The position numbers and the translations under genes were made by a program. The notes beneath the pieces were generated by a model, which ran no database searches, had not been told where the DNA came from, and was given only the letters and a program-made list of their open reading frames with translations. Positions 1-31,942 of a DNA stretch of 64,000 nt are shown here, piece by piece. Location of the stretch: assembly GCF_000380165.1 (NCBI RefSeq), contig NZ_KB904668.1, positions 1 to 64,000 on the forward strand. The letters are read 5' to 3'. This DNA comes from Wenjunlia vitaminophila DSM 41686. GTDB taxonomy: Bacteria > Actinomycetota > Actinomycetes > Streptomycetales > Streptomycetaceae. Every line of letters starts with the position of its first letter. Positions within the stretch are counted from its first letter, which is position 1.

Positions 1-246
1 GCCTATCTCCGCGGCCGAGGCATCAAAGCAGCGATCCCTGAACGGATCGACCAGATCAACGGCCGCATCCGGCGAGGCGAGAGCAGGTGCCGACTCAACC
101 GCGCGGCCTACCGCCGCCGCAACGTCGTCGAACGCTGCTTCAACCGGCTCAAGCACAACAAAGCCCTGGCCACCCGCTACGACAAACGCGCCCGCCACTA
201 CCAAGCCCTGGTCACCCTCGCCTGCCTGCGACTCTGGCTGCCCTGA
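1..246 (+). CDS. IS5-family transposase, C-terminal fragment (cut by window edge)
   Basis: The open frame enters from the left edge and ends at a TGA at 244-246, giving the last 81 residues of a DDE transposase. The C-terminal segment NVVERCFNRLKHNKALATRY, with the E and the R/K-rich helix after it, is typical of IS5-group transposases, where the glutamate completes the catalytic triad. The frame ends only 15 bp from the stop of the convergent DUF5063 gene, so the insertion sequence sits right at the 3' edge of the recR operon. I cannot see its 5' end or its left inverted repeat, and I could not place a clear right inverted repeat. Confidence 0.8.
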   Translation, partial: AYLRGRGIKAAIPERIDQINGRIRRGESRCRLNRAAYRRRNVVERCFNRLKHNKALATRYDKRARHYQALVTLACLRLWLP

Positions 247-261
247 CTTTGCGGACACGAC

Positions 262-930
262 CTAGCGCGGGCGCAGCCCCAGGGGTTCGGCGATCTCCGC
301 CGCCATCACCGCACCGGCCTCCCGCTCGATGTTCTCGTCCGCCGCGGCGCTGTCCGTGTCCATGCCGTCCACCAGAGCGTCCAGCGGGGTGTCCAGACGG
401 ACGTGGGCGACCAGCGACTGCAGGGCCCGCAGCACCGCGCTGGCGGTGGCGCCCCAGTTCGACAGGTACGAGAACTGCCACCACCACAGCGCCTCCGCGG
501 TGCGGCCGGCCTTGTAGTGGACCAGGCCGTGGGAGAGGTCGGTGACCACGTCCGCGATGTCGTCCGAGATCCGGCAGGTGACCGGTGTGGAACGGGGGAC
601 GTAGGGGTCGAAGACCTCCGAGTAGACGTCCACCGGCGCCAGCAGCTCGGCGAGGCGTTCCCGGAGCTGGTCGGCGTCCGGTTCCGGGCCGGCATCGGGC
701 TCGTACCGGTCGTCCGGCAGCACGTCCTCGACGGCCCCGAGCCGGCCGCCGGCCAGCAGGAGCTGGGAGACCTCAAGGAGCAGCATGGAGATCGCGCTGC
801 CCGGCTCGTCGCCCCTGGCGACCTCGCGCACCGCGACGATGAAACTCTCGATCTGGTCACTGATCTGGACGGCGAAGTCGGTTGGGCCGTCGGACGGCGG
901 AACGGAAGCGGTGATGGTCGTGTCAGACAT
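262..930 (-). CDS. DUF5063 domain protein
   Basis: This 222-residue protein begins [15 protein letters not shown] and carries the acidic, tryptophan-containing alpha-helical pattern ([16 protein letters not shown] near residue 165) of the actinobacterial DUF5063 family. The family has no established function. It regularly sits immediately after recR in actinomycetes, as here. The ATG at 930 overlaps the recR stop by 8 bp, which implies translational coupling. A longer upstream frame exists but would run into recR, and the ATG is the conserved-looking start. A GGGAG lies about 11 bases before it. Confidence 0.85.
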
Positions 931-4748: not shown

Positions 4749-4833
4749 GGAGGATTCGCCTAGAGGCCTAGGGCGCACGCTTGGAAAGCGTGTTGGGGGC
4801 AACCCCTCACGAGTTCGAATCTCGTATCCTCCG
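4749..4833 (+). tRNA. tRNA-Ser (anticodon GGA)
   Basis: The acceptor arms GGAGGAT (4749-4755) and ATCCTCC (4826-4832) pair fully, with G as discriminator base and no encoded CCA. The anticodon stem CACGC/GCGTG encloses the loop TTGGAAA, giving anticodon GGA (serine, UCC/UCU codons). A long variable arm (GGGGGCAACCCCT) and TTCGAAT in the T loop confirm a class II tRNA. The 3' half from the anticodon stem is the integration site of the adjoining island and is copied at 26181, 28818 and 31899. This is the only copy with a 5' half. Confidence 0.97.
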
Positions 4834-4841
4834 CAGCCGCC
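4780..4841 (+). repeat. attL: left 62-bp direct repeat at tRNA-Ser 3' end
   Basis: The 62 bases from the anticodon stem of tRNA-Ser to eight bases past its 3' end are repeated without a mismatch at 26181-26242. A tRNA-half direct repeat of this kind is the standard footprint of integration by a tyrosine recombinase, and incoming DNA restored the tRNA. The sequences diverge immediately outside both ends. The interval of about 21.4 kb between the copies is read as the integrated island. Confidence 0.9.
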
Positions 4842-4916: not shown

Positions 4917-5243
4917 GTTGCGTGGGGCGGACGGCCGTGGATCTCCACGGACAGGCTTCGGCTGCTCTCTGCCGACGACCAGGTCACCGGGGTCCTGATC
5001 GCCGACCGCATCGAGACCAAGATCCTTCTGAATGACCAACGTGAGGCTTCGCGGCAACGTGCGGGCCCCACCAGCCCGAGCCAGCTCCTTGAACCGGCCA
5101 GCGGAGAGGTCAACCAAGCGGCCCCGGTGCTACGAACACCGGGGCCGAAGTAGAGGCTCCACCGCACAACCATTTATCCCTGAACGATCGAAACCGGAGG
5201 CCGGGGTTGCCGCCCCGTAATGGCCTGCCGGATGAGGAGCTCT
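4917..5243. other. Island left end, no convincing gene
   Basis: About 330 bp between the paired GGTCTCA repeat and the first island gene. Short open frames exist on both strands (for example 4914-5117 minus and 5032-5220 plus), but none has a recognisable domain or a good ribosome-binding site. The place where an integrase or excisionase would be expected holds only these fragments. The last bases (5234-5239) carry the GAGGAG ribosome-binding site of the next gene. Confidence 0.5.
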
Positions 5244-6881
5244 ATGCCCCAAGGTACGACCCTGTCGCCCCAGATGCCATCCCACTTCGGTGAGGGCCCC
5301 ACTCCAATGGAGCCGCCCTGCAACGTGGACGCCGAGCGCGCGATCCTCGGCGCCTGCATGCACAAAGCCGACATCATCGATGAGGTCCGGCCCATCCTGG
5401 GCGACGACGCCTTCTACCGACCCGCGCACGAGACCATCTGGCGCGCGCTCCTCGCCCAGCACCGCGAGGACAAGCCGACTGACCCGATCGTCCTCACCGA
5501 GCCGCTCCAGCAGCAAGGTGACCTGCAGCAGGTCGGTGGTCACCCCTACATCTTCCAGCTCGCGGGCGCGCCCTACGGCACTAGCAGCGCGGAGCACCAC
5601 GCGGAGATCGTCCGCGAAAAGGCCGACCTGCGGCGCCTGGTGACCTCCGCCGTGCGTACCCTCCAGCGGGCCCAGGAGCCCGGTGCGGATCCGGAGGCGA
5701 TACGCAGCGAGGTCGAAGCCGAGGTACGCGCCGAACGCGATCGCGCACTCGCGTCGGGGCAGGGACGACTGTCCCGCTTCGCCACCGACGGGTGGTCGTT
5801 CGTTAAAGAGAGCGGCGCAGACGCCGAGCCCCTGTGGGGCAGGCGTGAGAAGACCGTCTGGGCCCCCGGCGAGAGCCTGATGATCGTCGGGGCTCCGGGC
5901 GTCGGCAAGACCACCTTGGCCCATCAGATGATCTTCGCCCGCCTCGGCTTGCAGGAGACCGTCCTGGAGATGCCAGTCGCGCCCAGCAGGCGGATCCTCT
6001 ACCTTGCGATGGACCGTCCCAAGCAGATCGCCAAGGCCATGGCCCGCCGCGTCTTCCCCACCGACGAGAAGATCCCGCGCGAGCGGCTCGTCGTCTGGGA
6101 GGGTCCGCTGCCTGCCACACCCGACAAGGAGCCCGACCTCCTCGCCGACCTCGCCGCCCACCAGGCAGACACAATCGTGATCGACAGTCTCAAGGATGCG
6201 GTCAGCACGATGGTCGACGACAGCCTCGCGGTCGCCTTCCACAACGCCCGCATGCGCGCCCTGCGAGGCGGCGTGGAGATCATGGAGCTGCACCACCAGC
6301 GCAAGGCCACCGCCGACGCACCGCGCGGCCAGCGCCCCAGCCTGGACCAGGTCTACGGCTCCACCTGGATCACCGCCGGCGCGGGCAGCGTCCTGTTCGT
6401 CACCGGCCGGGCAGGCGACCCAGCCGTCACCCTGCACCACCTCAAGACCCCCACCGGTGAAGTCGGCCCTCTGGACGTCACGCACGACCATGTGCGCGGC
6501 ACTACCACCGTCGACCCCACCAAGGACCCAGCCGCCCTGCTGCGTAACGCCCCCAATGGGCTGACCGCACGCGACCGGGCGACCATCCTCATCGGCGGGG
6601 GCGACCCCGAACGTGCCGACATCGAGAAGGCGCGACGCCACCTCAGCCGCCTCGTCGACAGCGGCCTGGCCACCAAGGCCGACGGCGTCGCCGGCGGAGC
6701 CGGAGGCGGCCAGCAGACCCGCTACTACGCCTCCGCACGCCATCTCACCGCCGTCGGCCGGGAGTGGGGCCGGTCGACCTCCGCATTGCGGAGCCCCTGC
6801 AACGGCAACAGCGAATCGAACACCATGCCGATCTTCGGGCGGAGCTGCTTATACCGAGGGACACTGACATCGCTCCCGTGA
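5244..6881 (+). CDS. DnaB N-terminal domain / RecA-fold ATPase
   Basis: This 545-residue protein combines a DnaB-type N-terminal helical domain (NVDAERAILGACMHKADIID from residue 28) with a RecA-fold ATPase: Walker A GAPGVGKTT at about 216-224 and Walker B TIVIDSLKD with D314. The ATPase part resembles RepA/AAA_25 proteins more than a full DnaB, and the canonical DnaB C-terminal motifs are not obvious. A winged-helix-like C-terminal segment (TARDRATILIGGGDPERADIEKARRHL) follows. I chose the ATG at 5244 because GAGGAG lies four bases upstream; an ATG at 5220 has none. It may be an element replication helicase, or an accessory ATPase of the defence genes that follow. Confidence 0.7.
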   Translation: MPQGTTLSPQMPSHFGEGPTPMEPPCNVDAERAILGACMHKADIIDEVRPILGDDAFYRPAHETIWRALLAQHREDKPTDPIVLTEPLQQQGDLQQVGGHPYIFQLAGAPYGTSSAEHHAEIVREKADLRRLVTSAVRTLQRAQEPGADPEAIRSEVEAEVRAERDRALASGQGRLSRFATDGWSFVKESGADAEPLWGRREKTVWAPGESLMIVGAPGVGKTTLAHQMIFARLGLQETVLEMPVAPSRRILYLAMDRPKQIAKAMARRVFPTDEKIPRERLVVWEGPLPATPDKEPDLLADLAAHQADTIVIDSLKDAVSTMVDDSLAVAFHNARMRALRGGVEIMELHHQRKATADAPRGQRPSLDQVYGSTWITAGAGSVLFVTGRAGDPAVTLHHLKTPTGEVGPLDVTHDHVRGTTTVDPTKDPAALLRNAPNGLTARDRATILIGGGDPERADIEKARRHLSRLVDSGLATKADGVAGGAGGGQQTRYYASARHLTAVGREWGRSTSALRSPCNGNSESNTMPIFGRSCLYRGTLTSLP

Positions 6882-7064
6882 CTGCGATCAGTTCAAGCCA
6901 CTTTCGGGCTTTTCGTCACGTGCCTTGACGATTGCGTGTTCTCCGGCGTGCTCCGTTTGACGAGGTGCGAGCCGAGCCAAGAGCGTGCTCGTCCCGTACC
7001 TAATCGGCTGAAAGGCGTGCACTCTGGCGGTCGCTTGCGGTGCCGTGGGTCACCCTGATCAGCC

Positions 7065-8231
7065 ATGGCGCGCGAACAGAAGGATGTGGCGCTGACCAAC
7101 GTGGTCGGCGCACGAACGGCCACAGTGAAGCTGGTTGGTGACCTGACGACGGCCGGGCTGCGTGCCGCCCAGGCATGGTCGGTTCGCCGGGAGCAGCCCG
7201 AGGCATGGCGAGAGGTCTCGCGCATGCACGGGGTGTTCCTCAGCCTGCTGTCTCCCGGCTGCGGGCCGGCGACACCGCGCGACCTGATCAAGTTTCTCCA
7301 CCGCCCCATGAGGGAGTGGGTGCCGCTCACCTGGGACTCGCTACCCGACGAGCTCGGCTCCTTCAAGATCCTTGGGGCGGACGACTTGCTGACCGGTGAT
7401 GCCGTCGAGTACGGGTCCGACTACAGCGAGGCCCTCTTCGAGAACCACGAGGCCGGCATCGATTGGGTACCCCGGTGGGCCAGGCAGACGTTCGAAAGAG
7501 TCGAGCGCTCCATCTACACGGTGCTGTCGTCAGCTGGGCAGGAGGAGTACGTCGCCACGAGGCAGATGCTGATCGAGGTACCGGCGGGGACAGCGGACCG
7601 CGTCAGCGACGAGCTGCACGCGCGCGGCGCGCTGCACACCGAGGCATATGAGCCGCTGCCACCGGACCGGCAGTTCGTGGTGGGGCACGAGTCCTGGTAC
7701 GTACCGTGTCCGACGTGCAAGTGGCCCATGCACGTCCAAGGCGCGTCGCTGGCGTGTCGGTATCCTCCACACTTCGGCCGGTTCCAGGTAACGGACGAGC
7801 GTGACGACAGCGGCGCGCCACGAGTTCGCGGTCCCGTGGCGGCGTGCGCATTCAGCGCCGCCGACGTGGTGTGCGTGCACGAGGCGGTCTGGCGCTACAT
7901 CACGGTCCCCGGCGTCACCGAGGTCGCCTTGATGACGTGGCTGGCGGATCAGCCTGGAATCGGCGACGACGCGGTGACGAAGTGGCCGCACAAAGACAGG
8001 TGGGACATTACCGTGCGGGCCGGCGCCACCGTCTTCGAGGTCGACCTCAAGGACACCAGATCCCCGTCGAAGATCACCGCCAGGCCACCCCGGGCCCGGC
8101 ACGTCGTGGTGCCCGACTACCGGGCCTGGCAGGTCGCCCAGCTGCGACGCTCACTGCCCGCGGGCTACGAGGTTCGTACGGTGCGCGCGTTCAAGACCGC
8201 GATCCGGAACGCCCTGAAGGAGGCGCGGTGA
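7065..8231 (+). CDS. pPIWI-RE island REase-like protein with zinc knuckle
   Basis: This 388-residue protein is the first gene of the three-gene pPIWI-RE set. The N-terminal 200 residues form the family's helical region of unknown role. A zinc-knuckle-like cluster follows (C215-P-T-C218, then C231 and CRYPPHFGRF). The C-terminal part fits a restriction-endonuclease fold: helix with E286, then WDITV with D314, then VFEVDLKD with D327 and K329, the usual D...DxK arrangement, and a conserved-looking RHVVVPDY strand. Its frame overlaps the helicase as GTGA. The ATG at 7065 lacks a clear ribosome-binding site; the GTG at 7086 has AGAAGGA but only about two bases before it. The nuclease assignment is by motif reading only. 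Confidence 0.75.
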   Translation: MAREQKDVALTNVVGARTATVKLVGDLTTAGLRAAQAWSVRREQPEAWREVSRMHGVFLSLLSPGCGPATPRDLIKFLHRPMREWVPLTWDSLPDELGSFKILGADDLLTGDAVEYGSDYSEALFENHEAGIDWVPRWARQTFERVERSIYTVLSSAGQEEYVATRQMLIEVPAGTADRVSDELHARGALHTEAYEPLPPDRQFVVGHESWYVPCPTCKWPMHVQGASLACRYPPHFGRFQVTDERDDSGAPRVRGPVAACAFSAADVVCVHEAVWRYITVPGVTEVALMTWLADQPGIGDDAVTKWPHKDRWDITVRAGATVFEVDLKDTRSPSKITARPPRARHVVVPDYRAWQVAQLRRSLPAGYEVRTVRAFKTAIRNALKEAR

Positions 8232-11200
8232 CCGGGCGCTCCCTGGCCACTATGAATGTGCAGCGTCTGAGCACACTGGCCGCGCTGGCTCTGGCGGCGC
8301 GACTGTTCCCGAACCGCTCGGAGGAGCCCTTCCGTCACGCTTCGGCGATCCGCGACGCGCATCTTCTCCTGTCCGGGCATACCCACCTGTGGAACCGCTA
8401 CGGGGAGCTGTCGTGCGAGGACACGCGGCGAGTCACCAGACTCCTGTGGCACCGCCCCGCTCGCCTCGCGATCCTCGCGGCCTTCCGCCGGGCGGTCGAA
8501 GACCTCTTCGACTCGCCCGATCTGCCCGAGGGATTCGCGGTTCTTGACGACGAGCACTACTTGATGACCGTCCAGCAACGTCTTGCATCGCTGGTGGACC
8601 AGGTGTTGGAGGAGCTCGATGGTCGCCGGTCAGCAGCCGACGAGGGACGGAGCCGGGAGCTGGCCCTCCAAGGTCACTTCCGCATTGGCACCCAGATCCC
8701 CGACCCGAGCCGCCCCGGCAACGGCGTAATCCAGGCCCACTACGTCCTCGACCTGCCCCAGATCCAAGCGCCGCTGCCGGACTTCGGTAAGCCCAAGGAT
8801 TGCCTCAGGCGGCAGGTGCCGATCGACGCGCTGCGCGCGATCGCGGACGCGCAGGACCACGCCTTCGGTCAGAGCCACCGGCGCAAGAGCCTGGAACGGA
8901 TCTTCAAGCACATCCGTCGAGCCGACGGCTCCCTGCTCGCCGACGGCTTCCTCATCCTGGACGCTGGCCTGATCCGCGTGCTGAGCGCCTGCACGGGTTC
9001 AGGCAAGAGCGTCCTGGCCAAGCTGCTCGCCGCGTGGGGCGTGAAGAACAATCTGGTGACCGGGATCGTTGTGCCACGCAACGACAGCGTGCTCTCCTTC
9101 ACCCGCGCGATCTGCAAAGAGCTGCACGCACTCGGTCTCCAGGACGCGGTCGTGGTGCCGCTGATCTCCCCGAACAGCATGCAGGAGGTGGCTGAGAAGG
9201 CCGCCCGCAGCCTCATTGAGGAAGGGCGAGCCCAGGAGGGGGATGAGGCGTACGGCGAGTTCGCCTATGGATGCGCCATGCAGGCGAAATCCACCAACAC
9301 GCAGGACGTCGACCTGTGGCAGCCCGGCCACGAGCGGTGCTCCGACTTCGAGGGCACCGATCCTGAGAGCGGTGAGACCCGGCGCCACCGCTGCCCGTGG
9401 TTCGCGCACTGCGGCAAGCATCGTCATCAGCTGAACCTCGACAAGGCCGACGTCATCATCACCAACCACATCAACCTGATGTCCGGACGCCTGCATATCC
9501 CCGTCCTGGCCGAAGGCCACGTGCGCAACCACATGACCGTCGAGGAAGCGCTCCTTCGGCTCACCCATGTTCTGCTCATCGATGAGGCGGACGCCTTCCA
9601 GGCCACTGGGTTCGCCAAGAGCGCCCACCACGTCACGCTGGCCCGCTACGGCAGCCGACAACCCAGCGCTCTGCAAGAGCTCCACGACCAGTTCAGCGTC
9701 CGCGCCGGTGCCCTGATGTACGAGCTGGAGCGGTACATCCACCCCAAGATCACCCAAGTGCGCTTCCTCGCCGAGAGCTACGTCAGCAACGCCGCGCACG
9801 GGCGTATCGCCCAGAGGGGACCCAACGAACGCAACCGCCAGCAGCTGGCCCGCCGTCGCCTGATCATCCCGCGCCGCTGGGACGCCTGGTGCACGGCACG
9901 CCTGTGGCGGTCACCTGACGGCGAGTCACCCACGCGCGAGCAGATCGATACCTTCCGCAAGCTGTTCAACCCGAAGGAGGAAGCACAGCTCGCGGGCGCG
10001 AAGGTCCCGGTCGTACCGGGGGTCGGCGAGAGCACTCGCGAACACCTGACCCAGTTGCGCACCGAGTTGCTCGACGCGACCGCGCTGCGCGAAGGCACTG
10101 ATCCCGTTTTCGACAACGTGCACGCGCGGATCGCCGCCGCTGCGCGTCCCCTCCTGGACGATCACCTTGCCGATGACGACCGCGAACTTCTCGTCGATCT
10201 CCTCGTGCGCAGGGCGTACCTGGAACAGATCCGCGCCCAGATCGAGTACGTGACCAGGTCAGGCACCTCACTGAAAGCCTCCGGTATCACGGCGGCCAAC
10301 GAGCTGACCGAAATGCTGGAGGACAACAACCAATGGCATGCTGCCCCCTACGGTCCTCTGGGGGCACCGGTATTCGGCTTCACGGCCATCCACGACATCG
10401 AGGACAAGCACCGCACCGAACTGGCCCTAACCTCCTTCGCGGGCGACCCGCACGCGTATACCGCACAACTCGGTGACACCACCGCGCTGGCGCTGTGCGG
10501 TCAGCGCCGCATCGTGCTCGGGCTGTCCGCAACCGCCTACATGCCCGGCGGGACCATGCACCACCTGATCACACCCCCTACCTGGTACGTCCCCGACGAC
10601 ATCACCGGCTCCCTCGTACTGCGGTCGCTCACATTGCGGGACGAGCGGAACAACCCCATCCGGATCTCGGGAACCTCGGACATCCACCGGGACCAGGCCC
10701 ATCAACAGATGGGCCGCGCACTGTGGTCCCAGCACATCGTCCAGCACTTGAAGAAGCTCGCCAGCCGACCTGCAACCGCACACCGCGCCCGCATCCTCGT
10801 CGCCTGCACCTCCTATGTCGGCGCCGCTCAACTCGCCGAAGGAATGATCTCCGCCGGCGCGGACCCGGAAATGATCGCAGTCGCCACCCGTGCGAGCGAT
10901 GAGAACACGGTGCCAGCCCACTACCGGCGCCGCCCCGCCTGGTACGAGATCCCCTCGGACGCGCTCGAACGCTTTCCCCACCACCCGACCGCCAAGGTCC
11001 TCATCGCGCCGCTCGCCATCGCCGAGCGCGGATTGAACATGGTCGACCACAGCGGCCGGTCCTTGGTGGGTGAGGTCATCCTCGCCGTCCGCCCGATCCC
11101 GCTCATGGACGAACCCGCCCAGCTCCTCGCCCTGATCTCGAGCCGCGCCTACAGCAGCGTCACCCACTCGGCCGACCCCGCCGAGACGCTCCGGGACCTG

Positions 11201-11533
11201 GCCATCACCTCCAGCTCCGTTCACGAGGAGCTGTTCCGCAGCCACCACTTCTTCCAGTCCCTGCCGAACAAGGTGCGGTTGTCGATCGTCGCCGAGATGC
11301 TCATCGGCATCATCCAGCTCGGTGGCCGAGTACGACGAGGCGGCGACCGAGGCGTCCTCTACCTGGCTGACTACGCCTTCCACAACCCCTCCAGCGGCAG
11401 CGACCTGCCACGCCTGATCCGCGAACTGCGGGAGGGATGGAGCCGGAGTGGCGAGCTGGAGCTCCTCCAGAACATCTACGGCAGCACCCTCCGGGCGATC
11501 TTCGACTTCGCCGACGAAAGGACCAGCAACTGA
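8228..11533 (+). CDS. pPIWI-RE-associated DinG/XPD-type helicase
   Basis: This is a superfamily 2 helicase of 1101 residues, starting at a GTG that overlaps the previous stop (GTGA). Residues 1-240 are an accessory helical domain. Walker A TGSGKS is at 256-261 and the DEAD box (LLIDEADAF) at 452-455. Four cysteines (349, 371, 389, 395) lie between them, followed by KADVIITNHINLM, the Fe-S cluster and strand layout of XPD/DinG helicases. Motif VI is QLGGRVRRGG near 1030. Such enzymes unwind DNA 5' to 3', or D-loops and RNA-DNA hybrids. In pPIWI-RE systems this helicase is one of three constant components. It ends one base into the PIWI gene (TGATG). Confidence 0.88.
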   Translation: MTGRSLATMNVQRLSTLAALALAARLFPNRSEEPFRHASAIRDAHLLLSGHTHLWNRYGELSCEDTRRVTRLLWHRPARLAILAAFRRAVEDLFDSPDLPEGFAVLDDEHYLMTVQQRLASLVDQVLEELDGRRSAADEGRSRELALQGHFRIGTQIPDPSRPGNGVIQAHYVLDLPQIQAPLPDFGKPKDCLRRQVPIDALRAIADAQDHAFGQSHRRKSLERIFKHIRRADGSLLADGFLILDAGLIRVLSACTGSGKSVLAKLLAAWGVKNNLVTGIVVPRNDSVLSFTRAICKELHALGLQDAVVVPLISPNSMQEVAEKAARSLIEEGRAQEGDEAYGEFAYGCAMQAKSTNTQDVDLWQPGHERCSDFEGTDPESGETRRHRCPWFAHCGKHRHQLNLDKADVIITNHINLMSGRLHIPVLAEGHVRNHMTVEEALLRLTHVLLIDEADAFQATGFAKSAHHVTLARYGSRQPSALQELHDQFSVRAGALMYELERYIHPKITQVRFLAESYVSNAAHGRIAQRGPNERNRQQLARRRLIIPRRWDAWCTARLWRSPDGESPTREQIDTFRKLFNPKEEAQLAGAKVPVVPGVGESTREHLTQLRTELLDATALREGTDPVFDNVHARIAAAARPLLDDHLADDDRELLVDLLVRRAYLEQIRAQIEYVTRSGTSLKASGITAANELTEMLEDNNQWHAAPYGPLGAPVFGFTAIHDIEDKHRTELALTSFAGDPHAYTAQLGDTTALALCGQRRIVLGLSATAYMPGGTMHHLITPPTWYVPDDITGSLVLRSLTLRDERNNPIRISGTSDIHRDQAHQQMGRALWSQHIVQHLKKLASRPATAHRARILVACTSYVGAAQLAEGMISAGADPEMIAVATRASDENTVPAHYRRRPAWYEIPSDALERFPHHPTAKVLIAPLAIAERGLNMVDHSGRSLVGEVILAVRPIPLMDEPAQLLALISSRAYSSVTHSADPAETLRDLAITSSSVHEELFRSHHFFQSLPNKVRLSIVAEMLIGIIQLGGRVRRGGDRGVLYLADYAFHNPSSGSDLPRLIRELREGWSRSGELELLQNIYGSTLRAIFDFADERTSN

Positions 11534-14163
11534 TGGCCGCCGCCCCCACGCGCCTCTACACCGCCGACTTCCCGCTCAGCCCGGACCTGATGGGGCAGGT
11601 GTGGCTCTACCCGCTCACCCCGGAGTTCGAAGACCTCTGGGAGAACTGCGAACGGCAGTGGGATCCCGAGGAAGGGTTCCGGACCCCACACGGCGCCCTG
11701 CGCGTCGCACTCGGCACGGTCACCGGCCGCATGATCGTTTTCACCGTCGCCCGCAGGCGCAACGTCCGGCCCGGCGAGGAACGGAGCCTGATCGTCGCCG
11801 ACGGCCCTCTGGACACCAGGCTCACCACGAGGTGCTTCGACGTCTGGCAGAAGCTGCACTTCCGCGGCGTCAGGGACGGGCAGCTCCTCAGCCACCACAT
11901 CGACTTCGAGCGCGCCGTATGCCGCCCCCTATCCGATGTCCTCAAGCGGGACGAAGTCGGATACGTCACCGGGCCCTGGTGGTGGAAAGACGCCGCCGGC
12001 TGGGCCGTCATCCAACGCCTCGCCGCACATCCCATGATCGACAAAGCCCATCCCGCCCAGCGCGCCACGACCTTCCGCGTCGGGCTGGCACACGACGCCA
12101 AAAGGCTGGTGGCCTGGGACTATCCCTACTACCGCACCATCTACCAGGGAAGGTCGAACGAACGAACGGGATGGGCGATGGCCTATGTCTCCGTCACCGG
12201 AGAAACCCAGCGCGGCCTGCCCGACCCGGTTCTCCGCTTCGACTGCCATGTCACGCGGGTTGCCGACCACTGGAGCAACGTCAAGACGGTCACCCTCAAC
12301 CACCCGCAGTTCGACACCCTCCTTCGCGTCCCGGTACGCCACGTCCCCCAGCGCGGCCCTGACGGCGAGAAGCTCCGAGACAAGAACGGCCGCCTCATCT
12401 GGAAGACGGAATTCCGCGGCCACACCGCCGCCATCGTCCAGGCGTGCGGCCTCACCCCAGTAACGTTGCCCGACAAGGCTGACGGGGACCTCGAACGCGT
12501 CCGCGCCGTCTTCCGCAACAAGGGCAGTCACCTCGTCGGCAAGGGCGTGGGCGCGTACTTCACCCTGCGCATGGCCACCCACATCGCTGACGTCCTGGGC
12601 ATCCAGCCGATCACATACGACAAGTCCCGCTACACGATCCCGGGTGCCACCATCACCCACGGCCCCATCCCGGTCAAGAAGCTGCCCCAGGCACTGGAGG
12701 CCGCCGGCTGGAAGTCCATGCGCCTGGTCGTCGTCCACGCCGCGGACACCACCCCCCGCCGCGTCATGCGCCAACTCCGCCTCGACTACGGAGTGCCGAT
12801 CCCCGAAGCTCTCGTCGGACCGGACGCCGGGTTCGACGCGAAGATCGTAGACCTCGCGCCTGCCATCACAGTGGAGTTCCGCAAGATCCCCGAACTGACC
12901 ATGCACGGCTCCCACGATCGCACGAGCATCGTCCAATCGAGTGGCTTCTTCCACTCTGACGACCCCGACCAACTCGTCGCCGCCATCTGCGAAACCACCT
13001 GGGACGGCAAGCCCATCCCCAACGACGGCAAGCCCTCCACCCGCAAGGCACTCGCCGCAGCCGGAGTCGTCAGCCAGTTCCTCACCGTGGCCGACGCCCC
13101 GACGAAAGACGAGGAGACGGACTTCCCCACCAGCGCGGCCTTGCGCCACATCTTCCAGAACGCCGGCATCATCGATGACCGGCTCGCGCGCGCGACGTGC
13201 GCCGCGCCGGACGTCCGCATGGAAGCGCCCCTCACCGAACCCGTCACCGTGGTCGGTATCCACCTGCGCCGGCACAACTACCGGCGTGTACGCGGCCAGG
13301 CACCCCGGCGACCCAAGCTCGTCGCTTGCCTGGTCGCGATGCACTTCACACCCGACACCGAGGCCCCGCCGTACACCGAGATGTACCACAATGGCCGGTG
13401 GCTGCGCTACGCCGAGGGACGGGCTGCCTACCACGCCAGCGAGATCGGCAACGAGAACTGGGGCCGGGACGGCAACGGGGCCCGCGCGGTCCGCGACCAC
13501 ATCGAGACCGCCTTGGACAGCCTCATCCTCCCAGAGGGTTACAACCGTGTTGTCCTCGTGCTCGACAAGGAGGGCAGCCGTAGCATCTACCCCGGCATGG
13601 GCGACAACCCGTTCGCCGGTGGTCTGCTTCCCGGTCGCGGCCTCGCCCAGGACGGCGTTGACGTGGCCGTTGTCCGGATCGCCTTCGGCCACCACGCGGC
13701 ACGGCCTGCCACGGTCTACCGCGCCGGCGCCGACGACCTCGCCACTATGAGCCCCAGCTACCGGCGGACCCTGATCTTCGAGAAGAGGCACCCCCACGAG
13801 ACCGTCTGGATGCTCACGCAGCAGTCGCGTCAGCAGGCCGGCAACTCACCCATGCTGCGCGAGGGCAACCGGCGGACCCGGGAAGACTTCCACACTCTCC
13901 CCTTCAATCCCATGAACAAGGACCTCCACGCCACCAGCCGCATCGAGATCGCTATCCCCCGCCCAGGTGGCTGGGAGTCCGGCGACCTCGTGGCTCTCAT
14001 CGCCCGCCAGTGCGACCAGGCCGTCGCGTGGGACCACCGCACCCTGCGCTCCGCCCCGCTTCACCTCGCCCACCACGCCGATAGGGACCACCCCGACTTC
14101 GGCAGCCACGATCCGGGGGACGGCGACGCAGGGGACGACGAGCTGGAAGAAGAGCTGCTGTAA
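11533..14163 (+). CDS. pPIWI-RE family PIWI/Argonaute-like protein
   Basis: This 876-residue protein is encoded as the third gene of the REase-helicase-PIWI set, its ATG overlapping the helicase stop by one base. The N-terminal half is the family-specific region, then a MID-like part (LVVVHAADTTPRRVMRQLR, about residues 400-420), then an RNase H-fold PIWI domain from about 570. The C-terminus RSAPLHLAHHADRDHPDF (about 839-856) matches the PLHxAxxA ending of PIWI domains. In the RNase H fold, the strand expected to carry the first catalytic aspartate reads LVACLVAMHF and has none, while the later strand VVLVLDKEG keeps D678. Slicing may therefore be lost. The family is known from genome analysis as a predicted defence against invasive DNA or RNA; the guide and target are unknown here. 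Confidence 0.85.
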   Translation: MAAAPTRLYTADFPLSPDLMGQVWLYPLTPEFEDLWENCERQWDPEEGFRTPHGALRVALGTVTGRMIVFTVARRRNVRPGEERSLIVADGPLDTRLTTRCFDVWQKLHFRGVRDGQLLSHHIDFERAVCRPLSDVLKRDEVGYVTGPWWWKDAAGWAVIQRLAAHPMIDKAHPAQRATTFRVGLAHDAKRLVAWDYPYYRTIYQGRSNERTGWAMAYVSVTGETQRGLPDPVLRFDCHVTRVADHWSNVKTVTLNHPQFDTLLRVPVRHVPQRGPDGEKLRDKNGRLIWKTEFRGHTAAIVQACGLTPVTLPDKADGDLERVRAVFRNKGSHLVGKGVGAYFTLRMATHIADVLGIQPITYDKSRYTIPGATITHGPIPVKKLPQALEAAGWKSMRLVVVHAADTTPRRVMRQLRLDYGVPIPEALVGPDAGFDAKIVDLAPAITVEFRKIPELTMHGSHDRTSIVQSSGFFHSDDPDQLVAAICETTWDGKPIPNDGKPSTRKALAAAGVVSQFLTVADAPTKDEETDFPTSAALRHIFQNAGIIDDRLARATCAAPDVRMEAPLTEPVTVVGIHLRRHNYRRVRGQAPRRPKLVACLVAMHFTPDTEAPPYTEMYHNGRWLRYAEGRAAYHASEIGNENWGRDGNGARAVRDHIETALDSLILPEGYNRVVLVLDKEGSRSIYPGMGDNPFAGGLLPGRGLAQDGVDVAVVRIAFGHHAARPATVYRAGADDLATMSPSYRRTLIFEKRHPHETVWMLTQQSRQQAGNSPMLREGNRRTREDFHTLPFNPMNKDLHATSRIEIAIPRPGGWESGDLVALIARQCDQAVAWDHRTLRSAPLHLAHHADRDHPDFGSHDPGDGDAGDDELEEELL

Positions 14164-14189
14164 CTATGCACGTCGTGCGCCGTGCTCAA

Positions 14190-14640
14190 GGCCAGTGCCA
14201 CGGTGCTCGCCGGTTGCTCCGAAGCAGGGTAGAGATTGCCGGTTGTCTCCCTGTCCACGGACATCGCCGCGTGGAGAGCTCGGCGAGGCGGGCACCTTCC
14301 CGGCCGCCAGGGGCCAGCGCGATGGCCTCCCCTATGGTGCGTAACAGCTTGGTGCACCGGCCATGGCGGAATGTCAGGTCCGGGATCTGCTCGGCGAACT
14401 CTGCTGCGGACAGCCCGAGTTGCCGCAGAAGAACCGGCGACCCGCAGGTGAAGAACCCTGAATCCGGTCCGTACGGCCTGCCATCCGGATCAACGCGACG
14501 TGCAGGGGGGACAAGTGCGGGAAGAGGGCACGACCTCGTGGCCGTTGTGGACGACGTGCTCGGGCAGGCCGGCGGCTGGTTGTGGGCTGGCTACAGGCGT
14601 GCCGGGGCGCCCTGAGCGTGAGGCGAGGGGGAGCCGCTCG
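14190..14640 (-). pseudogene. Degenerate ISL3-family transposase, N-terminal part
   Basis: On the minus strand the segment GRRFFCGNSGCP, followed in another frame by AEFAEQIPDLTFRHGR and then EAIALAPGGREGARLAEL, matches the order of the N-terminal zinc-finger and helix-turn-helix region of ISL3 transposases. It is broken by at least one frameshift, and no DDE catalytic domain follows; the frame ends near the stop of the PIWI gene. The remnant lies between the pPIWI-RE genes and the minus-strand operon, marking a junction between two cargo blocks. Limits are approximate. Confidence 0.6.
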
Positions 14641-14763: not shown

Positions 14764-15516
14764 CTATCGACCGACTCGGACGTGCCCCATAGCTTCCGTG
14801 ACCGCCTGCCTCTCGGGAAGCGGCTGGCTCGGCGGAGCGACTGCTGCGGACGGGGAGAAGTGCATGAGATGCCCGGTGTGAGCCGGCTGCTCCAACCGTG
14901 TGCCCGGGTGGGAAGCCAGGTACTCGCGGAACGCCTGGGTCTCGCCGGGGAAGACGCCGTAGTTGTCCACGATCACGATGCCGCTCGGGGACACGAGGGG
15001 AACGAGTTCGGTGAGGCAGGTGACGGCTGGCTCGTAGAGGTCGGTGTCGATCACGAGTAGCGAGATGGCGAGTTCGGGGTGGTTGGCGACGTACTGCGGA
15101 ACCGTCTCGCACACGTCGCCGGGGACCAGGACCGTGTTCGCTTCGAGCCCGCGCCTCCGTTGCCCCAGGGTCTCAAGCAGCTGGTCTGCTCCGATGCAGT
15201 TGAGGCCGGCGACCTGCTGGATGTGGTCGACGATGCGCTGGTCGGATTCGGCGCTGGTGTGGGGGAATTCCCCGAACGTGTCGAAACCGATGAGGGGTCG
15301 GGTGTGCTCGGACTCCAGCAGGTGCCGCAGCATCGCCCACATGGTGAAGGATCCCCCGCGGAAGACACCGCACTCGACGATCGCGCCAGGGACCGTGCGG
15401 ATCCGCTGGTAAAGGTCATAAAGCGCGATTATCTTGCCGATGCGGCTGGGGCCGCAGGTCAGGAGGAAGTCCTCTTCGTGCTGGAATGCTGTGGCCGGAT
15501 CGGGAAGGTCGATCAT
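14764..15516 (-). CDS. TylF/MycF-type O-methyltransferase
   Basis: This is a 250-residue SAM-dependent methyltransferase of the macrocin O-methyltransferase family. The SAM loop is VECGVFRGGS (47-56), LIGFDTFGEF follows near residue 75, and the metal-binding aspartates are in IDTDLYEP (157, 159) and IVDNYG (184). Family members methylate sugar hydroxyls or small natural-product scaffolds, and act as Mg-dependent dimers or tetramers. Its ATG overlaps the stop of the LLM oxidoreductase by four bases (ATGA), so it is the last gene of the operon running left from about 22.1 kb. The substrate cannot be read from sequence. Confidence 0.88.
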   Translation of the reverse strand: MIDLPDPATAFQHEEDFLLTCGPSRIGKIIALYDLYQRIRTVPGAIVECGVFRGGSFTMWAMLRHLLESEHTRPLIGFDTFGEFPHTSAESDQRIVDHIQQVAGLNCIGADQLLETLGQRRRGLEANTVLVPGDVCETVPQYVANHPELAISLLVIDTDLYEPAVTCLTELVPLVSPSGIVIVDNYGVFPGETQAFREYLASHPGTRLEQPAHTGHLMHFSPSAAVAPPSQPLPERQAVTEAMGHVRVGR

Positions 15517-16481
15517 GCTGTTCCATACCTTTCTTCCTGGGTGAGTGGATTAGCGGTGGTAGTGGCTTCGGCCCGGCGAGCTGCGGCCGTGAGCAGGTCG
15601 ATCTGCTCGTCGTCGAACAGACCGAAGGGCATGCCGTGGGCGCACACGACGTGGTCGACCCCGAGGCTTTCCCATGCGGTGAGCCGGCTGTGCACCTCGT
15701 CAGGAGTGCCGATCAGCCCCCGTTTGCGCCACGCTTCGAAGCTGAGCCCGTCGAGGTGACCGCCAGGTACCCAACGGCGCAGCCTGGTCCACCGCTGGTG
15801 GAGATCGTCTTCGTCCGTTCCGATGACGGTGGTGAGCCCGACGGAGCGCAGGATGGGGGCTCTTTCCCGTGCCGACGGCTGCGCCGCATTCAGCCGTGCG
15901 AGACGCTGCCAGTAACTGGCAGGGGTGGGGTCCCAGGCCAGGTTCCAACCATCGGCGATGCGCGCGGCAACGCTCAGAATGCCGCTGCGTTTGCCCCCGA
16001 CCCAAACCGGCGGTGCCGTAGGACCCAGCTCGGTGCGGATCAGCGCAGCAGTCCGTTCCACGTCGGCGAGCCGGTCGGCGGCTGCGGAGAACCGGCGGCC
16101 TGCCGCTGCGAATTCCGCGGCATTCCAGCCGGCGCCGAGGCCGATGTCTAGGCGTTCTCCGGCGAGATCGGCAACCGTTGCGATCTGGTGGACGAGGAGT
16201 TCGGGTTCCCGCAGCGATGCGGGAGTGACTAGAGATCCGAGCCGGATGCGACGGGTGGTCGCGGCGATCGCGGCCAAGAGAGTCCAGCAGTCCGGGGAGC
16301 GGCGACGGTCCTGGGGGGCGACGTCCAGCCAGAGATGGTCGGATACCCAGAGCTGGTGCAGTCCGGCCTGCTCCGCTCTTTGGGCGTAGGCGAGTGCCCT
16401 GCGCGTCCGGTGTGCTCCGGTGACCTTTGGGTTAGGGAAGAACCCGTCGTAATGGGGCAGTGCCAGGCCGATCGTGATCAC
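15513..16481 (-). CDS. LLM-class (F420-dependent-type) oxidoreductase
   Basis: A 322-residue TIM-barrel protein of the luciferase-like/F420-dependent family: MITIGLALPHYDG at the start, LWVSDHLW, the GSLVTPASLREPELLVHQIATVADL segment, and GERLDIGLGAGWNAAEF. Streptomycete members usually use coenzyme F420, though FMN cannot be excluded. The GTG start overlaps the preceding kinase stop as GTGA, and the end overlaps the methyltransferase start as ATGA, so it is translated within the operon. It should supply a hydride-transfer or oxidation step in the same pathway; the substrate is unknown. Confidence 0.87.
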   Translation of the reverse strand: MITIGLALPHYDGFFPNPKVTGAHRTRRALAYAQRAEQAGLHQLWVSDHLWLDVAPQDRRRSPDCWTLLAAIAATTRRIRLGSLVTPASLREPELLVHQIATVADLAGERLDIGLGAGWNAAEFAAAGRRFSAAADRLADVERTAALIRTELGPTAPPVWVGGKRSGILSVAARIADGWNLAWDPTPASYWQRLARLNAAQPSARERAPILRSVGLTTVIGTDEDDLHQRWTRLRRWVPGGHLDGLSFEAWRKRGLIGTPDEVHSRLTAWESLGVDHVVCAHGMPFGLFDDEQIDLLTAAARRAEATTTANPLTQEERYGTA

Positions 16482-17566: not shown

Positions 17567-17583
17567 GGGTCTCCCGGTGTCCT

Positions 17584-21538: not shown

Positions 21539-22143
21539 GTGTCCACCTCCTCCGACCATCGTCCGTCGGCATCGGCCAGCAGGCTCGTGACGCCAAGTGA
21601 CTTTGCGGCAGCGACGTTCGCCGGCTTGTCGTCCACATAGAGGGTTCGGGCCAGGTCAGTGCTGCCGAGCACCCGGTCGTAGACCGCACGATCCGGCTTG
21701 ACCACTCCCGTGAGGCTGGAGATCCACACGTCCGAGAAATGGCCGGCCAGGGCGAGCGCCTCCAGCCTCGGGATGAGCCACTCGTGCCGGTGGTTCGAGA
21801 CCAGGATCAGGCGGGCCTGCCGTCCCCAGGACGGCAGCCGGCGGACCACAGGCATGGCCCGCATGGACTGGTCGAGGACCGTACGCCACTCTGCCGGAGC
21901 GCGCTCCAACCCGCAGGTCGCGGCCAGGGAGGTCCAGAAAGACGTCTCATCCATGCGGCCGGACCACAGGTCATCGCGGAACCGCTGCCTGAAGAGCTGG
22001 GCGACCACAGTGGGGCTCAGACCACTGGAAGACGCGACGGCGCGGAACAACGGCTCCATGGGTTCACCCAGCACGACTCCGCAGGCGTCCAGCAGCAGTG
22101 TCCGGTCCGGGGCTTCGCAGTGCAGCCGCGGTCGGCTCCTCAC
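21523..22143 (-). CDS. HAD-superfamily hydrolase
   Basis: This is a 206-residue HAD phosphatase-like protein, the first gene of the minus-strand operon. Motif I is LLLDACGVVLG with nucleophile D19; the residue two positions later, usually the acid/base aspartate, is cysteine. Motif II is LILVSNHRHEW, the motif III lysine is in VVKPDRAVYDR, and motif IV is LYVDDKPANVAAAKSLGV. The frame is open far upstream, but the GTG at 22143 has GGGAGG five bases before it and gives a normal family length. It probably removes a phosphate from an intermediate; alternatively it is a family member without phosphatase activity. Confidence 0.8.
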   Translation of the reverse strand: MRSRPRLHCEAPDRTLLLDACGVVLGEPMEPLFRAVASSSGLSPTVVAQLFRQRFRDDLWSGRMDETSFWTSLAATCGLERAPAEWRTVLDQSMRAMPVVRRLPSWGRQARLILVSNHRHEWLIPRLEALALAGHFSDVWISSLTGVVKPDRAVYDRVLGSTDLARTLYVDDKPANVAAAKSLGVTSLLADADGRWSEEVDTWLGC

Positions 22144-24430: not shown

Positions 24431-25885
24431 GTGGACGACACCCGCGGCGCGTCGCGGACCGCCGTCTACGCCGCCCTGAACGGTACTCGCCTGCCGAGCA
24501 TCCAGACTTTGGACACCATGGTCGAAGCCTGGACCGATGGTGGTGCGCCGGAGCTGCAGCGGTGGCGCGAACGACGTCGCGTCACCGAGGAGTCTCTGGC
24601 TGAGGCCACACGACTAAAAGGCGTTGCCACGGCACGTCGTACCCCCGAAGAGGAGGACTTCCATGAGCAGCTGTGCGCAATGTGGCAGGAGTGCGGCAGC
24701 CCCTCGACGGGGAGGGTGGCGCGGCACTGCGGCCTGAGCGCACGGAGTCTCGATTCCTACTTGGGAGGGCGGACGCTACCGACTGCCGCGCGCCTTCGCG
24801 AGCTCATCAACGGGCTCTCGGTGGTGCAGAGGGACAGTGAGGTCCCGTTGTCATCCCAACGCAAGGCACTGGTCGGTGAGGCGCTCTTCCGGGCACGTAC
24901 AGCCCACAAGGAAGAGCGGAGCAGGGTCCGTCAGCTGGCAAAAGCCCTACCCGGAGGACAGCCGACCGACTCAGACACTCCGCATTTCGACGGGTTCGGA
25001 GCCGTGCCGGGCGTTCGTCCCGGGCAACGGTTCGCCACCCGACGAGCGCTGGCCCAGACTGGCGTGCACCGGCAGTCCATCGCCGGCATCGCCGGCAGAG
25101 GGGATCGTGGAGCGGAATCAGTCGTACTCGCTGGCACACACGCCGATGACGACCACGGCGACGTGATCATCTACACCGGCGAGGGCTCGGTGGACCCGCG
25201 CCGGCAGACGCACGATCAGCAACTGACCCGGGGAAATGCGGCTCTCGCAGCGAGTGCCGCCACCGGCCTCCCCGTTCGAGTGACCCGACGGATCGCCACG
25301 GGTCCGCACGCTGGGTCGTACCGCTACGACGGACTGTACAGAGTCGAGGACTACTGGTCCGAGCAAGGTCCACACGGTCACAGGGTGTGGCGCTTCCGCC
25401 TCGTTCAGCTCCCAGCGGTGGAGCAAGGTGAAGTCGCCCAGCCAACGCCCGCGCTGACGGCGGGTACGCAGATGCGAGAGCGCGGTGATCGCCCCCGTTC
25501 GGTGTCCTCGGTACAGCGCGTCGTACGAAGCACCGCAACCGCGAACCTCGTCAAGCGCATGCACGACTACACGTGTCAGGTGTGTGGCATCCGCCTCCAG
25601 GGTGCGACAGGCGGATACGCCGAGGCAGCACACATTCGTCCGCTGGAGCCGCCGCACGACGGTCCGGACGCGGTGGAAAACGTGCTCTGTCTATGCCCCA
25701 ACCATCACGTGCTCCTCGACCAGGGCATGTTGATCATTAACGACGACCTCACCGTTGTGAACCGCGCGGACAGCACTCTGCTCGGCCGCCTCCACGAAAC
25801 CGCAGAACACCGGGTCGACAGGCGACACCTCGCACACCACCGGGTCCACCACGGGCTGCCTACGGATGTGACATACCAGGCATGA
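24431..25885 (+). CDS. HTH-SRA-HNH modification-dependent endonuclease
   Basis: This 484-residue protein has an SRA/YDG-like domain (about 186-330: FDGFGAVPGVRPGQRF, RQTHDQQLTRGNAALAAS, YRYDGLYRVEDYW) and a C-terminal HNH nuclease (C382-x2-C385, AAHIRP with H401, C420 and C422, PNHHVLLDQGM). SRA-HNH proteins cut DNA carrying 5-methylcytosine or hydroxymethylcytosine (type IV restriction). The N-terminal 130 residues look like one partial and one complete helix-turn-helix. The GTG at 24431 is the only start after an upstream stop at 24410, so the first helices of the first motif are missing and the gene may be 5'-truncated. It sits at the right end of the island, consistent with a defence role. 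Confidence 0.82.
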   Translation: MDDTRGASRTAVYAALNGTRLPSIQTLDTMVEAWTDGGAPELQRWRERRRVTEESLAEATRLKGVATARRTPEEEDFHEQLCAMWQECGSPSTGRVARHCGLSARSLDSYLGGRTLPTAARLRELINGLSVVQRDSEVPLSSQRKALVGEALFRARTAHKEERSRVRQLAKALPGGQPTDSDTPHFDGFGAVPGVRPGQRFATRRALAQTGVHRQSIAGIAGRGDRGAESVVLAGTHADDDHGDVIIYTGEGSVDPRRQTHDQQLTRGNAALAASAATGLPVRVTRRIATGPHAGSYRYDGLYRVEDYWSEQGPHGHRVWRFRLVQLPAVEQGEVAQPTPALTAGTQMRERGDRPRSVSSVQRVVRSTATANLVKRMHDYTCQVCGIRLQGATGGYAEAAHIRPLEPPHDGPDAVENVLCLCPNHHVLLDQGMLIINDDLTVVNRADSTLLGRLHETAEHRVDRRHLAHHRVHHGLPTDVTYQA

Positions 25886-26180: not shown

Positions 26181-26242
26181 CTTGGAAAGCGTGTTGGGGG
26201 CAACCCCTCACGAGTTCGAATCTCGTATCCTCCGCAGCCGCC
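26181..26242 (+). repeat. attR: right 62-bp direct repeat
   Basis: A perfect copy of 4780-4841, containing the anticodon stem-loop to the 3' end of tRNA-Ser plus eight bases. There is no 5' half of a tRNA upstream, so it cannot be a functional tRNA gene. It marks the original chromosomal site, or the junction to an older integrated segment, since two further copies follow. Confidence 0.9.
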
Positions 26243-28817: not shown

Positions 28818-28877
28818 TTGGAAAGCGTGCCGGGGCAACCCCTCGCGAGTTCGAATCTCGTATCCTCCGCACCCGCC
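28818..28877 (+). repeat. Third, diverged copy of tRNA-Ser 3' half (att relic)
   Basis: From TTGGAAAGCGTG through TTCGAATCTCGTATCCTCCG the sequence follows the 62-bp att core, with a handful of substitutions and a one-base deletion in the variable arm. There is no tRNA 5' half. It delimits the lipoprotein segment on its right. The greater divergence compared with attR suggests an older integration event. Confidence 0.8.
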
Positions 28878-31898: not shown

Positions 31899-31942
31899 GA
31901 AGCGTGGTGGGGGGGCGACCCTCACGAGTTCGAGTTCCGTAT
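31899..31942 (+). repeat. Fourth, strongly degraded copy of tRNA-Ser 3' end
   Basis: AAGCGTGGTGGGGGGGCGACCC followed by TCACGAGTTCGAGTTCCGTATG aligns with the core from the anticodon stem through the T loop, with several substitutions and indels. It retains GAGTTCGA of the T arm but has lost the acceptor end. As the most degraded copy it is the best candidate for the oldest att junction and probably marks the outer limit of the accreted region. Confidence 0.65.

What the first reader, a model, noticed from the sequence alone, without database searches (positions are those of the whole stretch)
7065..14163. Complete pPIWI-RE three-gene system in a tRNA-Ser island
A REase-like protein, a DinG/XPD-type Fe-S helicase and a PIWI-fold protein are encoded in that order with overlaps of 4 bp (GTGA) and 1 bp (TGATG). 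Seen: the D...DxK motif with an upstream zinc knuckle, the helicase motifs with four cysteines, and the PIWI C-terminus. Known: this is the gene set of the pPIWI-RE systems described computationally by Burroughs, Iyer and Aravind (2013) and proposed as defence against invasive nucleic acids. Inference: this copy is an intact Streptomyces example, carried on a mobile island with an SRA-HNH nuclease.
Basis: partly seen in the sequence, partly recalled or inferred. Interest (0 to 1): 0.85.

Follow-up and report, generated by a model that had tools for sequence, protein, structure and literature searches.

The report
pPIWI-RE defence operon with inert PIWI
This is a complete copy of a known but barely tested bacterial gene trio (a DNA-cutting enzyme, a helicase and an Argonaute-like protein that has lost its own cutting site), sitting in a tRNA-anchored genomic island; it probably finds and destroys invading DNA, and some relatives sit right beside the telomeres of linear Streptomyces replicons.

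Summary
Window 7065-8231, 8228-11533 and 11533-14163 (+) encode the pPIWI-RE trio (Y+REase, DinG helicase, X+MID+PIWI), with overlaps of 4 and 1 bp. It lies in a 21.4-kb module bounded by 55-bp repeats of tRNA-Ser(GGA). Pfam and PADLOC models match all three proteins, and the PIWI model folds like long Argonautes (Z about 19). It is an ordinary member of a known family. A 96% identical 7.4-kb block sits in unrelated surroundings in Streptomyces sp. NRRL S-340.

Added here: (1) the PIWI is almost certainly nuclease-dead. The first catalytic Asp is His577 and is absent in all 77 actinobacterial trio PIWIs aligned, while the REase D-x12-DxK and helicase motifs are invariant. The architecture is thus inert guide-binder plus Fe-S helicase plus PD-(D/E)XK nuclease, as in DdmDE and ApsAB. 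(2) No phage-type integrase lies in the island. (3) The genome has a second, larger pPIWI-RE locus. (4) In at least ten streptomycete genomes from three trio lineages, relatives lie 0.5 to 14 kb inside one palindromic telomere type; other replicons with that telomere have Gabija/Wadjet or CRISPR genes there.

Function (plasmid or phage DNA destruction) is inferred, not shown.

The parts
7065..8231 (+). Gene 1: pPIWI-RE Y domain + zinc knuckle + PD-(D/E)XK REase (388 aa); active site D314-x12-D327-x-K329 at about 8004-8051
   Evidence: Pfam PF18156 2.4e-13, PF18154 1.4e-14; invariant residues in 46 homologues; AF2 pLDDT 87
8228..11533 (+). Gene 2: DinG/XPD-type Fe-S SF2 helicase (1101 aa; GTG start overlaps gene 1 stop by 4 bp); Walker A at about 8993-9007, four Cys at about 9272-9412
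   Evidence: PADLOC PprDinG 8.5e-182; invariant helicase motifs and Cys
11533..14163 (+). Gene 3: pPIWI-RE X + MID + RNase H-fold PIWI (876 aa); starts on last base of gene 2 stop; R715 and E805 present
   Evidence: Pfam PF13032 1.8e-33, PF13111 1.7e-18, PF18157 2.2e-5; AF2 pTM 0.90, Argonaute fold Z about 19
13261..13263 (+). His577 codon at the first catalytic Asp position of the PIWI (second Asp, D678, kept at about 13564-13566)
   Evidence: 0 of 77 actinobacterial trio PIWIs have Asp here: H59 W13 S2 F1 N1 R1
6820..14213 (+). 7.4-kb block shared with Streptomyces sp. NRRL S-340 (96.4% identity), flanks unrelated: the trio moves as a unit
   Evidence: block edges read
4749..4834 (+). tRNA-Ser(GGA), attachment site; repeat unit about 4780-4834, beginning near the anticodon loop
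   Evidence: ARAGORN; exact repeats
26181..26235 (+). 55-bp exact copy of tRNA-Ser 3' part: right boundary of the 21.4-kb module holding the trio
28818..28870 (+). Second downstream tRNA-Ser 3' copy (25 bp exact, about 93% over 54 bp); bounds a 2.6-kb module with one 633-aa ORF
24431..25885 (+). HTH-SRA-HNH endonuclease (type IV restriction-like) in the same module; neighbour, not part of the system
   Evidence: Pfam SAD_SRA 9.3e-45, HNH_2 2e-12
5220..6881 (+). DnaB-N + AAA_25 ATPase gene upstream of the trio; not conserved with it
   Evidence: Pfam; no homologue beside other trios

Best explanation
It is a compact actinobacterial pPIWI-RE operon that most likely acts as a guided DNA-destruction system against incoming DNA. 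Proposed mechanism: the PIWI protein binds a short guide (or an R-loop) and a matching target but cannot cut, because its catalytic Asp pair is broken. Target binding then recruits or activates the Fe-S DinG helicase, which unwinds the DNA, and the PD-(D/E)XK protein of gene 1 cleaves the exposed DNA. This is the division of labour known from DdmDE and ApsAB: inactive Argonaute-like sensor plus helicase plus nuclease. Shown: gene content, family membership, conserved REase and helicase catalytic residues, loss of the PIWI first Asp, and horizontal movement of the trio. Inferred: guide use, order of events, target type (plasmid or conjugative DNA at least as likely as phage), and the defence function itself.
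For: HMM matches to all three family-specific protein models. REase and helicase motifs are invariant while Asp is absent at the first PIWI position in 77 of 77 trio PIWIs. The predicted PIWI fold matches long Argonautes across 3..858 (T. thermophilus Ago Z 19.4, 533 aligned). The REase model's best, though weak, matches include several DdmD C-terminal regions (9bf1 Z 6.4 over 185 residues), and ApsA's nuclease motif D1420...D1433-V-K1435 (PMC11096173) has the same spacing as D314/D327/K329 here. Patchy distribution, a near-identical block in an unrelated site and a decayed relic in the sister species fit gain and loss of a defence gene. Near telomeres, trios lie where Gabija, Wadjet or type I-E CRISPR genes lie on other replicons. 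Plasmid destruction by such sensor-helicase-nuclease sets is documented (PMC11096173).
Against: No experiment on a trio of this kind was found in the library. The only tested relative, PsPIWI-RE, is catalytically active, and its deletion changed ciprofloxacin sensitivity and cell division, which the authors read as a replication role (PMC10991935). DdmD similarity is structural only and below Z 8, and profile searches of the PDB sequences with each protein's alignment found no DdmD or DdmE. The DdmD helicase fold could not be compared because the helicase was not modelled. No guide source is known.
Confidence: 0.55

Rival explanations
1. The trio acts on host or replicon DNA metabolism (R-loop removal, replication-transcription conflict or telomere upkeep/exchange of linear replicons) rather than in defence.
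For: PsPIWI-RE deletion phenotype (ciprofloxacin, division; PMC10991935). DinG helicases resolve R-loops (Burroughs 2013). Relatives lie 0.5 to 14 kb inside one palindromic telomere type in several lineages, transcribed inward like ttrA. Telomere classes lacking tap/tpg have unknown end-patching proteins (PMC8743542).
Against: The window copy and most relatives are not telomeric. The same telomere type occurs without an intact trio (G100, G295, G341, NZ_CP108691). Presence is patchy and copies decay.
Confidence: 0.2
2. RNA-guided DNA nuclease in which the PIWI itself cuts, as in PsPIWI-RE.
For: D678 is retained; some family members are active (PMC10991935).
Against: The first catalytic Asp is His577 and is absent from all 77 actinobacterial trio PIWIs; D525A or D610A each abolished PsPIWI-RE cleavage.
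Confidence: 0.05
3. Modification-dependent restriction: the trio, with the neighbouring SRA-HNH protein, restricts modified DNA like Mcr systems.
For: SRA-HNH lies in the same module; Burroughs 2013 noted the likeness of a methylase-free REase to Mcr.
Against: SRA-HNH does not travel with the trio: absent beside the 96% identical trio of NRRL S-340 and nearly all relatives.
Confidence: 0.08
4. A decayed passenger: expressed poorly or not at all after the island lost its integrase.
For: No phage-type integrase on the contig; relic copies exist elsewhere in the genus.
Against: All three frames are open with overlapping starts and coding-type GC3; family-invariant catalytic residues are intact in genes 1 and 2.
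Confidence: 0.08

Closest known systems
pPIWI-RE three-gene system (Burroughs, Iyer and Aravind 2013, PMC3702460; PADLOC PprRE/PprDinG/PprPIWI)
   Same: Gene order REase-DinG-PIWI, overlapping ends, Y+zinc knuckle+REase, Fe-S helicase, X+MID+RNase H PIWI, R and E present, no adjacent methylase
   Different: Divergent compact branch: MID match just under cut-off and helicase Z domain not detected by Pfam; PIWI catalytic Asp lost in the whole actinobacterial set
Streptomyces sp. NRRL S-340 trio (L073)
   Same: 95-97% identical proteins, same gene order
   Different: Unrelated flanks; no tRNA-Ser module, SRA-HNH or DnaB-like gene beside it
PsPIWI-RE of Pseudomonas stutzeri (PMC10991935)
   Same: Same protein family, PIWI gene overlapping a dinG gene
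   Different: Active DNA/RNA-guided nuclease with both Asp; window protein lacks the first Asp
DdmDE (V. cholerae) and ApsAB (E. coli)
   Same: Inactive Argonaute-like sensor with SF2 helicase and PD-(D/E)XK nuclease; REase resembles DdmD C-terminus by fold (Z 6.4); same D-x12-DxK spacing as ApsA
   Different: Helicase and nuclease are one protein there, two here; no sequence similarity found; helicase here is Fe-S DinG type
Second pPIWI-RE locus of this genome (G000:C46, L171)
   Same: Y-REase, DinG, X-MID-PIWI
   Different: Larger; flanked by PprPDDEXK nuclease, N6 DNA methylase and Ser/Thr kinases; much stronger Pfam scores

Membership tests
pPIWI-RE three-gene system | PIWI protein with X, MID and RNase H domains of the family | tested here: met
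   PF13032 1.8e-33, PF13111 1.7e-18; PF18157 2.2e-5 at 25.2 bits vs cut-off 26.6; PprPIWI 9e-111
pPIWI-RE three-gene system | Conserved Arg and Glu of the PIWI domain | tested here: met
   R715 (65 of 77) and E805 (61 of 77) in the alignment; assignment to the R/E pair by position, not by superposition on a reference
pPIWI-RE three-gene system | Y domain + zinc ribbon + REase protein encoded first | tested here: met
   PF18156 and PF18154 matches; Zn ligands and D-x12-DxK conserved
pPIWI-RE three-gene system | DinG-clade helicase with Cys-rich Fe-S region encoded second | tested here: met
   PprDinG 8.5e-182; four invariant Cys
pPIWI-RE three-gene system | Z domain N-terminal to the helicase | tested here: inconclusive
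   No PF18155 match at E<=1 in the window protein, though a 240-residue N-terminal region is present; detected in relatives L161 and L171
pPIWI-RE three-gene system | Strict order with overlapping or abutting genes | tested here: met
   4-bp and 1-bp overlaps
pPIWI-RE three-gene system | RNA-guided restriction of invading DNA | not testable with these tools
   Needs experiment
Catalytically active PIWI/Argonaute | Catalytic Asp on RNase H strands 1 and 4 | tested here: not met
   Position 1 is His577; 0 of 77 relatives have Asp
DdmDE / ApsAB | Sequence homology to DdmD/ApsA or DdmE/ApsB | tested here: inconclusive
   No DdmD/DdmE chain among PDB sequence hits of the three profiles; weak fold match of REase to DdmD; ApsAB sequences not searched
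DdmDE / ApsAB | Helicase and nuclease fused in one protein | tested here: not met
   Separate genes 7065-8231 and 8228-11533
tRNA-integrated mobile element | Direct repeat of tRNA 3' end at both boundaries | tested here: met
   55-bp exact repeat at 4780 and 26181
tRNA-integrated mobile element | Own integrase | tested here: not met
   PF00589 search finds no match on contig C34; integrases from the same site in relatives have no trace; serine recombinases not searched

The most novel reading that the evidence does not exclude
The actinobacterial pPIWI-RE trios are DdmDE-like guided plasmid/conjugation barriers built around an inert PIWI, and they are specifically tied to linear replicons: one palindromic telomere type repeatedly carries them as its end-proximal, inward-transcribed operon, so they may police telomere-led conjugative transfer or exchange of chromosome ends. 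The window copy would be a branch of that telomere-linked clade that moved into a tRNA island.
Probability: 0.2. Interest if true: 0.8.

Novelty: new member of a known kind. Interest (0 to 1): 0.45.

Why it matters
pPIWI-RE systems have stood as a computational prediction since 2013, with one biochemical study of a catalytically active relative. This copy and its relatives give a consistent, testable division of labour (inert PIWI, live helicase and nuclease) that links the family to the plasmid-destroying DdmDE/ApsAB logic, and show that the REase marker occurs in about a quarter of sampled Streptomycetaceae genomes. The repeated telomere-adjacent placement would bear on how linear Streptomyces replicons keep out or exchange DNA, if it is functional.

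Tried and rejected
Searches of phage records and IMG/VR viral contigs found no relative, so no sign of phage carriage. PDB sequence searches with single proteins and with profiles gave no relevant homologue beyond short helicase Walker-region matches. DnaB-like gene 5220-6881 and SRA-HNH as system components: rejected, not conserved with the trio. Idea that the telomere-proximal helicase is ttrA itself: not pursued, as no TtrA sequence was compared. Idea that trios are strictly telomeric: rejected. Among 65 loci on contigs of 50 kb or more, 8 start within 3 kb of the upstream contig end against 1.1 expected (3 on the downstream side), but most of the 8 are one clade and one of them (L134) has no palindromes. 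NCBIfam gave nothing useful for the trio. Foldseek on the REase model gave no significant hit; only the second-look aligner ranked DdmD and PD-(D/E)XK nucleases first, all under Z 8.
Full report
Observation. The window holds three + strand genes at 7065-8231, 8228-11533 and 11533-14163. The second starts on a GTG that overlaps the first stop by 4 bp, and the third ATG shares one base with the second stop. Family models match all three far above chance: pPIWI_RE_Y and pPIWI_RE_REase on gene 1, PprDinG (8.5e-182) on gene 2, and pPIWI_RE_X, RNaseH_pPIWI_RE and, just under its cut-off, MID_pPIWI_RE on gene 3. NCBIfam has no model for the set.

Residues. In 46 REase homologues D311, D314, D327, K329, C215, C231 and H236 never vary, and C218 is kept in at least 90%. 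In 14 to 16 helicases the Walker A, DEAD box, four cysteines (349, 371, 389, 395), SAT and QxxGRxRR motifs never vary. In the PIWI, R715 and E805 are present, by position the R/E pair of the family. The first catalytic Asp of the RNase H fold is His577. In an alignment of 77 actinobacterial trio PIWIs this column holds His 59, Trp 13, Ser 2, Phe 1, Asn 1, Arg 1 and never Asp; the second Asp (D678) is kept in 58. Either Asp mutation abolished cleavage by PsPIWI-RE (PMC10991935), so the window PIWI is very probably unable to cut. I did not have the PsPIWI-RE sequence, so this mapping rests on the strand-1 and strand-4 motifs, not on a direct alignment to it.

Structure. An AlphaFold2 model of the PIWI protein from a 50-sequence alignment reached pLDDT 87 and pTM 0.90. 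Foldseek finds Argonautes and PIWIs at E about 1e-13, and the second aligner puts T. thermophilus Argonaute first (Z 19.4, 533 aligned, spanning 4..858). The REase protein model (pLDDT 87) has no significant Foldseek hit. The second look ranks DdmD of V. cholerae first (Z 6.4, 185 residues), followed by Can2, Card1 and type II restriction enzymes. All these are below Z 8 and therefore only suggestive. ApsA, the E. coli antiplasmid helicase-nuclease, has its nuclease Asp-Asp-x-Lys at 1420, 1433 and 1435 (PMC11096173), the same spacing as 314, 327 and 329 here.

Surroundings. tRNA-Ser(GGA) lies at 4749-4834 beside dnaX, ybaB and recR. A 55-bp exact copy of its 3' part recurs at 26181, a shorter copy at 28847 and a degenerate one near 31900, so the trio lies in a 21.4-kb module followed by a 2.6-kb and possibly a 3-kb module. 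The repeat begins near the anticodon, as expected for tyrosine-integrase attachment. Relatives carry integrases beside the same tRNA (G001, G003; a broken one in G009), but the window contig has none, and no remnant of those integrases is found. The module also holds a DnaB-N/AAA ATPase, a putative biosynthetic cluster, HTH and NUDIX genes and an HTH-SRA-HNH endonuclease. In Streptomyces sp. NRRL S-340 a 7.4-kb block (window 6820-14213) is 96.4% identical while both flanks are unrelated. So the trio moves on its own and its neighbours are not part of it. The only other genome of the genus keeps a relic: 78 bp of dinG joined to 111 bp of the PIWI gene at 80% identity, at another place.

Distribution. 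A genome-contig scan with the helicase alignment returned 77 loci in Actinomycetota, nearly all full trios in the same order. The REase model occurs in 95 of 395 sampled Streptomycetaceae genomes; the PIWI search found 42 of 395, a lower bound because few candidates per genome were scored. Seventeen Streptomyces plasmid records hold a PIWI relative, and phage records hold none. In a helicase tree the window and NRRL S-340 form a pair that joins a clade of Streptomyces and Kitasatospora trios with full support; the tree was a quick one, and the tool warned of long branches at this join.

Telomeres. That sister clade is unusual. In nine assemblies the trio starts about 0.2-1.1 kb from the contig end, and in eight of them the end sequence is an array of perfect hairpins with TGNC loops (4 to 10 in the first 300 bp against 0.2 to 0.8 per 300 bp further in; folding z -5.4 and -6.1 for two of them). 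The same sequence type occurs at bases 1-119 of the complete linear plasmid NZ_CP108691.1 and in the last 106 bases of the complete linear plasmid NZ_CP134205.1, so it is a real replicon end. NZ_CP134205.1 carries a divergent pPIWI-RE trio 2.3 kb from that end, transcribed inward. A third lineage (L120; L144/L145 at both ends of one strain) also has it 2 to 6 kb inside. Other genomes with this telomere have only a stub of the REase gene (G034, G217) or no trio (G341, G100, G295). NZ_CP108691.1 has Gabija and Wadjet genes and NZ_CP120993.1 has type I-E CRISPR genes in the corresponding place. The plain reading is that the telomere-proximal zone of linear replicons is a defence locus in which pPIWI-RE is one occupant; a telomere-specific role is possible but not needed. 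The window genome has no telomere of this type and its trio is internal.

Second locus. The same genome carries a stronger-scoring pPIWI-RE locus on contig C46: Y-REase, DinG with Z domain and X-MID-PIWI, preceded by PprPDDEXK (2.4e-174), a divergent Ser/Thr kinase gene and an N6 DNA methylase. Of 26 sampled loci with that nuclease, 23 have the methylase and 23 the kinase nearby. Burroughs et al. described the trio as lacking a methylase. This larger form is in PADLOC as far as the nuclease goes; I found no paper on the methylase and kinase association in the library held. Its PIWI also lacks Asp at both positions in most members.

Mechanism. Shown: membership, intact helicase and nuclease residues, lost PIWI nuclease residue, mobility of the trio. 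Inferred: guide binding by the PIWI, recruitment of helicase and REase, destruction of invading DNA. The arrangement matches DdmDE and ApsAB in composition (inactive Argonaute-like sensor, SF2 helicase, PD-(D/E)XK nuclease), and their known targets are plasmids (PMC11096173, PMC12904381). I therefore think plasmid or conjugative DNA is at least as likely a target as phage. Against this stands the replication-related phenotype of PsPIWI-RE deletion (PMC10991935).

Verdict. A correctly recognised, complete pPIWI-RE trio; a new member of a known kind, with a close copy in another genome. The interest lies in the family-wide inert PIWI, the DdmDE-like logic and the telomere-adjacent relatives, rather than in this copy itself.

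Noticed in passing
G000 contig C46, L171:1262-14796: Second pPIWI-RE locus in the same genome, with N6 DNA methylase, Ser/Thr kinase and PprPDDEXK nuclease genes upstream of REase-DinG-PIWI; methylase and kinase each near 23 of 26 sampled loci with the PprPDDEXK gene.
   Followed up: partly
L081, L082, L083, L084, L088, L100, L106, L114, L120, L144/L145, L161: pPIWI-RE trios lie 0.5 to 6 kb inside a palindromic telomere type of streptomycete linear replicons; NZ_CP108691 with the same telomere has Gabija and Wadjet there, NZ_CP120993 type I-E CRISPR.
   Followed up: partly
window 4749-31942; L067-L070 (G007:C34): The dnaX-linked tRNA-Ser is an accretion site: 3 to 4 tRNA 3'-end copies in the window and 11 over about 70 kb in G007, bounding modules of 2 to 25 kb; no phage-type integrase was found on either contig.
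   Followed up: partly
window 14764-22674 (-): Putative biosynthetic cluster inside the island: TylF-type methyltransferase, luciferase-like monooxygenase, APH-like kinase, a class I Trp/Tyr-tRNA synthetase (possible self-resistance enzyme) and an aminotransferase fusion.
   Followed up: no
window 26775-28676 (+): A lone 633-aa ORF with no Pfam match fills the 2.6-kb module between two tRNA-Ser repeat copies.
   Followed up: no
L046:9759-9967 (G001): Relic of the trio in the only other genome of the genus: 78 bp of dinG joined to 111 bp of the PIWI gene, 80% identical, at another locus.
   Followed up: yes
L165:18803-18967 and L166:397-528: Telomere ends that keep only the first ~45-55 residues of the REase gene: scars of lost trios.
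   Followed up: partly
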